Shown here piece by piece: positions 39,491 to 41,869 of a DNA stretch of 64,000 nucleotides. The notes beneath the pieces were generated by a model. The model saw only the letters and a program-made list of their open reading frames with translations, had not been told where the DNA came from and did not search any database. Where the stretch lies: the NCBI GenBank assembly GCA_002356215.1, contig AP017959.1:558001-622000 (forward strand). The letters are read 5' to 3'. Numbering within the stretch: position 1 is the stretch's first letter; every line of letters starts with the position of its first letter. Origin of the DNA: [Synechococcus] sp. NIES-970. Lineage in GTDB: Bacteria; Cyanobacteriota; Cyanobacteriia; Cyanobacteriales; MRBY01. Made by a program: the position numbers and the translations under genes.

Positions 39491-39727
39491 CTAGTAAGAC
39501 TTTGACTGCTCAAAGAGCGTTTCTAAGTATACTCTGGCGCAGGCCCGGTAGTTTTCGGCTTCGCGGGGGGTCTGCCCTTCTCCGGTTTGGAGGAGAAATT
39601 GGGACAAGGCAGCAGCAAAAACTCGGTCTTGGTCCCAGTTGGGATGGGTTTCGAGGTAGTCGGTCAGGGACTGATGCAAGGCCTCGGGAATTTCTGCCAA
39701 AATGCTCACGGTAGTAGGATTCATCAT
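39491..39727 (-). CDS. DUF2811 family small protein
   Basis: A 78-residue protein with the DUF2811 pattern: TVSILAEIPEALHQSLTDYLETHPNWDQDRVFAAALSQFLL and a C-terminal RVYLETLF segment. The fold resembles a ribbon-helix-helix-like or helical small regulator, but DNA binding is not shown. Cyanobacterial family. First gene of the run leading to pth. Its upstream region is the DnaA-box-like array. Confidence 0.8.
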   Translation of the reverse strand: MMNPTTVSILAEIPEALHQSLTDYLETHPNWDQDRVFAAALSQFLLQTGEGQTPREAENYRACARVYLETLFEQSKSY

Positions 39728-40255
39728 TAACCTTAATTTTGTCGAAAAGCTGCGGAATTAGGAGAAAAATTTGGACGAACAGGAAACGAAGGAACAGGTT
39801 TCAAAAACGACTAGGATAACTAGGATAATGACGTCGGCATTTTGTTCGATTTCGCCTGTCGTGGCCCTATTGTTGTCTATGGGGGGGTAGGTTTGTCAAT
39901 ATTGCGAAATGTTTCGTCGAGGCGATCGCCAACCACTCTCTCACGCAAGAATAAGGGTTGTAGGCATATTTTGTTTACATTCCTTTACAGAAAAACTCTT
40001 CCCCAAGGCAAATTCACCATCCAGTAAAAGAATTCCCCAAACCCCTGCCAAGCTCTCAAAAAAAGTAGCTTTTAGCTGTGGAAAACCTGGGGAAAGCTGT
40101 GGAAAAAATTGCAATGACTGGGGAAACCATGGGGAATCACTGGGGGAATTTTGATCAAGAAAATAAGAATTGCAAATTTATTGAGAAAGATGAATTTTGT
40201 CAGGACTTTTGTTTAAATCATTAGAATCAAACTACTCCTACTCAGCCAGCAGTCC
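39728..40255. other. 528-base gene-free region, candidate replication origin
   Basis: No credible coding sequence. The left part holds a tandem CTAGGATAA (39811-39828) and a T/G-rich stretch. The right part holds the DnaA-box-like array listed separately, then an AT-rich stretch (about 40147-40250) that could be an unwinding element before the ATG at 40256. It sits between two divergent genes, so promoter function is also likely. Origin identity is inference: dnaA and dnaN are not in this window. Confidence 0.5.
39999..40149 (+). repeat. Array of DnaA-box-like 9-mers
   Basis: Two perfect cyanobacterial-type DnaA boxes, TGTGGAAAA (reverse TTTTCCACA), at 40077-40085 and 40098-40106. Four near matches follow the same strand: TGGGGAAAG 40088, TGGGGAAAC 40119, TGGGGAATC 40130, TGGGGGAAT 40141. 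Starts are 11, 10, 21, 11 and 11 bases apart, one or two helical turns. Two further inverted near matches, TTCCCCAAG 39999 and TTCCCCAAA 40033, lie to the left. Helical phasing of this many related 9-mers is unlikely by chance. Confidence 0.65.
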
Positions 40256-41356
40256 ATGGAAAATCGCCAACCCCAAGTTATCTCCAGTTCTGGATCCCAG
40301 AATCCTCAAAAACTGGATGTGCGCACCTGTGGTATCAATAAAAACCATTGGTATGTGGCAGCGCGCAGTGCAGAACTGACGGATCAACCCTTTGGCTTTA
40401 CGCTCTGGGAAGAAGACTTTGTCTTATATCGGGATACGGATGGAAAGGCCCATGCCATGGAAGACCGCTGCCCTCACCGCCAAGTCAAGCTGAGTTCTGG
40501 CCAAGTTGTGGGAGATAATCTCGAGTGTGCCTACCATGGCTGGCAGTTTGACGCGTCTGGTACCTGCGCCCACGTGCCTTATCTGGCAGAAAATCAGAAG
40601 CGTCCAGGCTGTAAAATTCGTTCCCTACCAGTACGAGAGCAAGATGGTTTCGTCTGGGTTTTTCCAGGGGATCCGCAGATTTTAGAAAAAGAAGCAATTC
40701 ACCCCCTGCCGATTCCAGAATGGGACCACCTCAATTACATCGTCAGTGTGACAACGATTGACTGTGAGGGGCATTTTTCTTATCTCATCGAAAATTTGAT
40801 GGATATGTACCATGGCCACCTCCATGATGATTATCAGGCTTGGGCCTCGGCGAAGTTAGAAAATATTGAGGTCGATGGGCAGCGGGTCGATGCCCACTAC
40901 GAAGCCCAGAGCTATTACAAGATTGATAAGATTTGGTCAGTGTCCCAGCTCTTCATTCCTTCCCTGCGCAAGCTGCACCCGGAGCCGCTGGATGTGAGCT
41001 ATGTTTACCCCAACTGGAGCGCCACCCTGGGCAATGATTTTAAAATTATGTGTCTGTTTTGCCCGACCCATGGCACTCGCACCCGGGCTTATTTGTTACA
41101 CTTCACGTCTCTGAATGCCTTTTGGCGACTTCATAAACTACCCGTTCCTTTCCGTCGCTGGGTCAAAGACCTCTGCTTTAACGCTGCCAAAGGTTTACTG
41201 GATGGCCTGGTGGAACAGGATGTGCTAATGATCGAGCAGGAACAAAAGGCTTATCTGGAAAATCCCCAGCGCCAGAATGTGGAACTCAACCGGGCGCTGA
41301 TGGCGGTGCAGCGACTGATCAAACAGCAGGCGATCGCCCAAGCAGAATCTGCCTAA
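40256..41356 (+). CDS. Rieske non-heme iron oxygenase (Pao/CAO-like)
   Basis: A 366-residue oxygenase. The Rieske [2Fe-2S] site is CPHRQVKLSSGQ...LECAYHGWQF (C-x-H ... C-x2-H, about 72-94). The mononuclear iron motif is ENLMDMYHGHLH (about residues 179-190). Cyanobacterial and plant relatives act on chlorophyll or carotenoid breakdown products or other aromatics; the substrate here is not known. It needs an external reductase or ferredoxin. The C-terminal Arg/Gln-rich helix lacks an obvious TM, unlike plant PAO. It starts just right of the DnaA-box-like array. Confidence 0.88.
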   Translation: MENRQPQVISSSGSQNPQKLDVRTCGINKNHWYVAARSAELTDQPFGFTLWEEDFVLYRDTDGKAHAMEDRCPHRQVKLSSGQVVGDNLECAYHGWQFDASGTCAHVPYLAENQKRPGCKIRSLPVREQDGFVWVFPGDPQILEKEAIHPLPIPEWDHLNYIVSVTTIDCEGHFSYLIENLMDMYHGHLHDDYQAWASAKLENIEVDGQRVDAHYEAQSYYKIDKIWSVSQLFIPSLRKLHPEPLDVSYVYPNWSATLGNDFKIMCLFCPTHGTRTRAYLLHFTSLNAFWRLHKLPVPFRRWVKDLCFNAAKGLLDGLVEQDVLMIEQEQKAYLENPQRQNVELNRALMAVQRLIKQQAIAQAESA

Positions 41357-41745: not shown

Positions 41746-41869
41746 GGCAGCTTAGATGTGGAAAACCATACTTTGCGACAAAAAACGTCTCCACTAAAAT
41801 TTAGAAGAAGACACTCACCCCCTATGGTAGAGCAACTTACCCAAGCCGCAGCAGCGCATAGGAGTCACG

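What the first reader, a model, noticed from the sequence alone, without database searches (positions are those of the whole stretch)
39999..40255. Helically phased DnaA-box-like array in a gene-free region: candidate oriC or DnaA-controlled locus
Two perfect TGTGGAAAA boxes (40077, 40098) and four one- or two-base variants on the same strand (40088, 40119, 40130, 40141) start 11, 10, 21, 11 and 11 bases apart, one or two helical turns. Two inverted variants lie to the left (39999, 40033). An AT-rich stretch with no ORF follows. Known: cyanobacterial DnaA boxes resemble TTTTCCACA. Inferred: DnaA filament loading site. Gene direction does not switch clearly here, and neither dnaA nor dnaN is in the window, so a regulatory DnaA site is the alternative.
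Basis: partly seen in the sequence, partly recalled or inferred. Interest (0 to 1): 0.75.

Follow-up and report, generated by a model that had tools for sequence, protein, structure and literature searches.

The report
Conserved DnaA-box array beside DUF2811
The repeated DNA sites are real binding-site look-alikes for the replication starter protein DnaA, but instead of marking the replication origin they form an ancient switch in front of an unstudied cyanobacterial gene (DUF2811) that disappears, together with the switch, when a lineage loses dnaA, which gives a first concrete lead on what DnaA does in cyanobacteria that no longer need it to replicate.

Summary
The array is real: six same-strand boxes (40077-40149) with 11/10/21/11/11-bp steps, far beyond chance. 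A sequence model of it finds the same roughly 104-bp layout (two invariant TGTGGAAAA, four weaker phased boxes, then AATAAGAATTGCAAAT) in 238 of 293 genomes of the order and in the wider class. In every top-scoring locus checked outside the genus the constant neighbour is the divergent gene DUF2811 (window 39491-39727), not dnaN, dnaA or the Rieske gene. An HLR1/RpaB-like site sits about 100 bp from box 1 in most loci. Array and DUF2811 are mostly lost or decaying in lineages that lost dnaA, including within single genera; a control gene is kept. One lineage has switched the boxes together to the canonical TTATCCACA. Separate dnaA/dnaN box clusters exist in other genomes that carry the array; here dnaA is 0.7 Mb away, sampled GC skew shows no turn at the array, and no unwinding motif is conserved. 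So: a DnaA-bound control region of DUF2811 (best), a datA/DARS-like site (rival), oriC (unlikely). All functional steps are inferred; there are no binding or expression data.

The parts
40077..40149 (+). six-box DnaA array: TGTGGAAAA 40077, TGGGGAAAG 40088, TGTGGAAAA 40098, TGGGGAAAC 40119, TGGGGAATC 40130, TGGGGGAAT 40141
   Evidence: layout conserved over the order and beyond it
40162..40179 (+). AT-rich element AATAAGAATTGCAAATTT at the right end of the array, nearly invariant; kept in dnaA-less G017 after its boxes are gone
40033..40039 (-). inverted weak box TTCCCCA, present as a TCCCCA-type site near this position in many but not all relatives
39999..40005 (-). inverted weak box TTCCCCA; not seen at this place in relatives
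39974..39991 (+). HLR1/RpaB-like direct repeat TTTACATTCCTTTACAGA (1 mismatch), 103 bp left of box 1; in relatives mostly 99-101 bp
   Evidence: motif definition PMC9241938
39491..39727 (-). DUF2811 gene (78 aa), the constant divergent neighbour of the array
   Evidence: Pfam PF10929 2e-28; linkage; co-occurrence with dnaA
38852..39487 (-). pth, peptidyl-tRNA hydrolase, next to DUF2811 here and in many of the non-genus loci checked
40256..41356 (+). Rieske [2Fe-2S] oxygenase-type gene; flanks the array only in this genus among the loci checked

Best explanation
The segment is a DnaA-binding control region of the divergent gene DUF2811. DnaA would bind the two strong boxes and extend over the four weaker, helically phased boxes as a filament about 100 bp upstream of an HLR1 (RpaB-type) site that marks the DUF2811 promoter, and so tie DUF2811 expression to the amount or state of DnaA. 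DUF2811 probably acts in the DnaA pathway itself, because it is mostly lost when dnaA is lost. Shown here: the array, its deep conservation, its linkage to DUF2811, the phase-locked HLR1-like site, and the co-loss with dnaA. Inferred: binding by DnaA, the promoter position, the direction of regulation, the role of DUF2811.
For: Same layout in 238/293 genomes of the order (20-sequence alignment) and in class members. DUF2811 is the neighbour in all 24 best non-genus loci of the order and in 12 of 13 loci fetched outside the order, the 13th being a dnaN cluster; its start lies 215-509 bp from box 1 (median 333), while the gene on the other side changes. HLR1-like site at -99 to -101 from box 1 in most loci; 14 of 22 loci have 2 or fewer mismatches against 1% of shuffles. 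In near-complete genomes the array (E<1e-3) is in 205/215 with dnaA and 5/43 without; DUF2811 in 208/215 and 7/43; control DUF1825 is kept in 41/42 dnaA-less genomes. Within-genus contrasts: g53, g73, g17, g13, g89. In dnaA-less genomes that still have DUF2811 the boxes are eroded or gone (G182, G192, G230, G017, G116, G158, G272). In G345 the strong boxes read TGTGGATAA, i.e. canonical TTATCCACA, and the weak ones changed with them. Array-dnaA distance varies widely between genomes.
Against: No expression or binding data. The array is 215-509 bp from the DUF2811 start, with no mapped transcription start; promoter placement is inferred. The co-occurrence statistics count related genomes separately, though at least nine families show dnaA loss. 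Exceptions: f15 g63 has dnaA but neither array nor DUF2811; f10 g75 has dnaA and DUF2811 but only a degenerate array; G027 has array and DUF2811 without a detected dnaA (95% complete draft). DUF2811 has no known function: the fold prediction was poor (pLDDT 62) and matched nothing.
Confidence: 0.58

Rival explanations
1. A DnaA titration or reactivation site, working like E. coli datA or DARS: the array assembles DnaA to control the pool of active DnaA, and DUF2811 is only a neighbour or a co-factor of that complex.
For: Ordered mix of strong and weak phased boxes, fixed spacing and invariant flanking element; lost with dnaA; box-to-gene distance is long and variable for a promoter element.
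Against: Linkage to DUF2811 is kept across the class although the other side changes; fixed spacing to an HLR1-like site; position relative to dnaA varies widely between genomes.
Confidence: 0.22
2. A replication origin (main or auxiliary) loaded by DnaA.
For: Tandem boxes next to a conserved AT-rich element; the window itself has three consensus trios left of box 1.
Against: Trios in 1 of 22 loci only; no GC-skew extremum; dnaA 0.69 Mb away; PCC 7002 origin maps near dnaA and is DnaA-independent (PMC7198777); separate dnaA/dnaN clusters with up to 12 perfect boxes in genomes that also have this array.
Confidence: 0.07
3. The repeats are read by another protein, for example an OmpR-type response regulator, which also uses 11-bp direct repeats, and the resemblance to DnaA boxes is incidental.
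For: 11-bp spaced direct repeats suit such regulators; four of six boxes depart from the DnaA consensus.
Against: Strong boxes equal the cyanobacterial DnaA box (PMC4674748); decay follows dnaA loss; switch to TTATCCACA in G345.
Confidence: 0.08

Closest known systems
dnaA/dnaN-linked oriC of cyanobacteria (Synechococcus elongatus, Cyanothece 51142)
   Same: TTTTCCACA boxes, tandem pairs 11 bp apart
   Different: Here one orientation, two strong plus four weak boxes in fixed layout, beside DUF2811, far from dnaA/dnaN, no conserved trios; coexists with a dnaA/dnaN cluster in other genomes
E. coli datA / DARS1 / DARS2
   Same: DnaA-box assemblies outside oriC, ordered strong and weak sites
   Different: No homology claimed; DUF2811-linked with an HLR1-like site; IHF or Fis sites not tested; effect on the DnaA nucleotide state unknown
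DnaA-regulated intergenic DnaA-box clusters of Bacillus subtilis
   Same: Box cluster upstream of a gene, outside the origin, expected to control transcription
   Different: Different gene; class-wide conservation of the exact box layout and co-loss with dnaA
RpaB-regulated HLR1 promoters
   Same: HLR1-like repeat in the DUF2811 upstream region
   Different: Coupled at fixed distance to a DnaA-box array; RpaB binding not tested

Membership tests
bacterial oriC | cluster of DnaA boxes beyond chance | tested here: met
bacterial oriC | adjacent to dnaA or dnaN (usual in cyanobacteria) | tested here: not met
   dnaA C1:2740903, dnaN C1:1419696, array C1:598077
bacterial oriC | GC-skew minimum | tested here: not met
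   about 860 kb sampled over 2.84 Mb: no turn at the array, weak minimum near dnaA; skew is weak in this group
bacterial oriC | box followed by at least three DnaA-trios, conserved | tested here: not met
   consensus trios in 1 of 22 loci
bacterial oriC | replication starts there | not testable with these tools
   PCC 7002 marker frequency peaks around dnaA (PMC7198777)
DnaA-regulated promoter | boxes recognised by DnaA | tested here: inconclusive
   indirect: co-loss with dnaA and concerted change to TTATCCACA; no binding data
DnaA-regulated promoter | conserved linkage to the regulated gene | tested here: met
   DUF2811
DnaA-regulated promoter | expression changes with DnaA | not testable with these tools
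   no expression data at hand
datA/DARS | changes DnaA-ATP/ADP balance | not testable with these tools
   biochemical property
datA/DARS | ordered DnaA boxes outside oriC | tested here: met
datA/DARS | IHF/Fis sites | not tested
   no search made
HLR1 (RpaB site) | two (G/T)TTACA(A/T)(A/T) repeats 2 nt apart | tested here: met
   1 mismatch in the window; at most 2 mismatches in 14 of 22 loci against 1% of shuffles
ribbon-helix-helix (DUF2811 protein) | strand-helix-helix fold or profile match | tested here: inconclusive
   no RHH family in the Pfam scan; AF2 model pLDDT 62 without a match

The most novel reading that the evidence does not exclude
DUF2811 is an unrecognised cyanobacteria-wide DnaA partner or brake, expressed under joint DnaA (array) and redox/light (RpaB) control; this loop is the reason dnaA is retained in cyanobacteria whose chromosome replication no longer needs DnaA or oriC.
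Probability: 0.3. Interest if true: 0.9.

Novelty: new variant of a known kind. Interest (0 to 1): 0.72.

Why it matters
Published work shows DnaA is dispensable for replication in PCC 7002, Synechocystis 6803 and Nostoc 7120, and states that its function there remains unclear (PMC7198777). This array is the best conserved DnaA-box site found here in the genus of the window, which has no box cluster at dnaA or dnaN; it points to one concrete target gene, DUF2811, whose name appears in no paper of the searched library. That makes the open question directly testable with a few deletions and one ChIP experiment.

Tried and rejected
oriC: rejected as main reading (skew, distance, trios, separate dnaA/dnaN clusters). 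Link to the Rieske gene: rejected, since none of the 78 Rieske loci outside the genus has such an array upstream. The AT element as a DnaA-trio region: no conserved trio run on either side. DUF2811 as ribbon-helix-helix: only a look of the sequence; Pfam, PDB-sequence and fold searches gave nothing. The second cluster at C1:2261129 as a relocated oriC: conserved beside upp in G002 and G003, not pursued further. One wrong turn: 51 loci were read on the wrong strand or with a wrong spacing and were redone.

Full report
What is there. The window lies at C1:558001-622000 of a 3.12-Mb cyanobacterial genome in a genus whose other members include PCC 7117 (contig length of G003 equals that of NZ_CP016477.1). 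Between DUF2811 (39491-39727, minus) and a Rieske gene (40256-41356, plus) six boxes stand on one strand with steps of 11, 10, 21, 11 and 11 bp, and two weak boxes stand inverted on the left. Shuffled windows never gave more than two such sites in 75 bp, against five.

It is conserved as a unit. A DNA search in the genus gave an island of conservation over the array where the flanks had diverged; aligned, the boxes and AATAAGAATTGCAAATTT are invariant or nearly so. A sequence-only model of this region found matches in 238 of 293 genomes of the order. The alignment of the best of them shows CTGTGGAAAA, a weak box, CTGTGGAAAA, then three weaker boxes and the AT element, in 102-104 bp throughout. 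A second model found it in other orders of the class; there some weak boxes become perfect ones (L188) and in G345 they read TGTGGATAA.

The neighbour is DUF2811. In all 24 best loci outside the genus the gene on the left is DUF2811, often followed by pth; dnaN, dnaA and Rieske are absent. The same holds for 12 of 13 loci outside the order, among them G348, whose chromosome length of 2,593,857 bp is that of Thermosynechococcus elongatus BP-1 (own knowledge). The start of DUF2811 is 215-509 bp from box 1, but an HLR1-like repeat is held at 99-101 bp in most loci. HLR1 is the RpaB site (PMC9241938).

It follows dnaA. In the same 293 genomes I searched dnaA and DUF2811. Counting dnaA as absent when only weak matches were found, the array is in 205 of 215 near-complete genomes with dnaA and in 5 of 43 without; DUF2811 in 208 of 215 and 7 of 43 (the completeness filter was set by hand from the tables). 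Related genomes are not independent, so the p-values are not to be taken at face value; but the losses lie in at least nine families and inside genera g13, g17, g53, g73 and g89. As a control, DUF1825 is present in 41 of 42 dnaA-less genomes. Where DUF2811 outlived dnaA, the boxes are eroded (G182, G192, G230) or gone (G017, G116, G158, G272); in G017 the AT element remains.

It is not the usual origin. dnaA is 0.69 Mb and dnaN 0.82 Mb away and neither has a box cluster. Skew sampled over about 860 kb has no turn at the array and a weak minimum near dnaA. In PCC 7002 replication starts around dnaA, with or without DnaA (PMC7198777). DnaA-trios, the unwinding motif (PMC8287927), are not conserved beside the array. 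In other genomes clusters of up to 12 perfect boxes lie at dnaA or dnaN in addition to the DUF2811 array: G312, G317, G324, G374; G037 has both as well. The distance between array and dnaA in single-contig genomes ranges from about 2% to nearly half of the chromosome.

Reading. DnaA most likely binds the array and controls DUF2811, with RpaB at the promoter; DUF2811 then acts in the DnaA pathway. Binding, direction and the role of DUF2811 are inferred. A datA/DARS-like role is the main rival. [quoted passage not shown] this locus is a testable candidate. Known before: DnaA boxes outside oriC as regulatory or titration sites. Apparently not described, within the searched library: this array, its link to DUF2811, and the co-loss.

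Noticed in passing
G000:C1:2261129-2261178 (L006:6129-6178): Second cluster in the genome: three perfect TGTGGAAAA 21 and 20 bp apart, downstream of a pentapeptide-repeat gene and near upp; conserved near upp in G002 and G003 (L195, L196).
   Followed up: partly
G000:C1:855548-895694: Tandem duplication of about 20 kb at 99.96% identity; either recent or an assembly artefact.
   Followed up: partly
window 41757-41765: Single perfect TGTGGAAAA between the TM2/SHOCT gene and DUF1825; conservation not examined.
   Followed up: no
L210:1988-2019 (G017): The AATAAGAATTGCAAAT element survives upstream of DUF2811 in a dnaA-less genome whose boxes are gone, so it may have a function of its own.
   Followed up: no
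genomes G125, G140, G190, G240, G261 (g53) and G252, G262 (g73): dnaA not found in members of genera whose other members keep it: further candidate dnaA-less cyanobacteria.
   Followed up: partly
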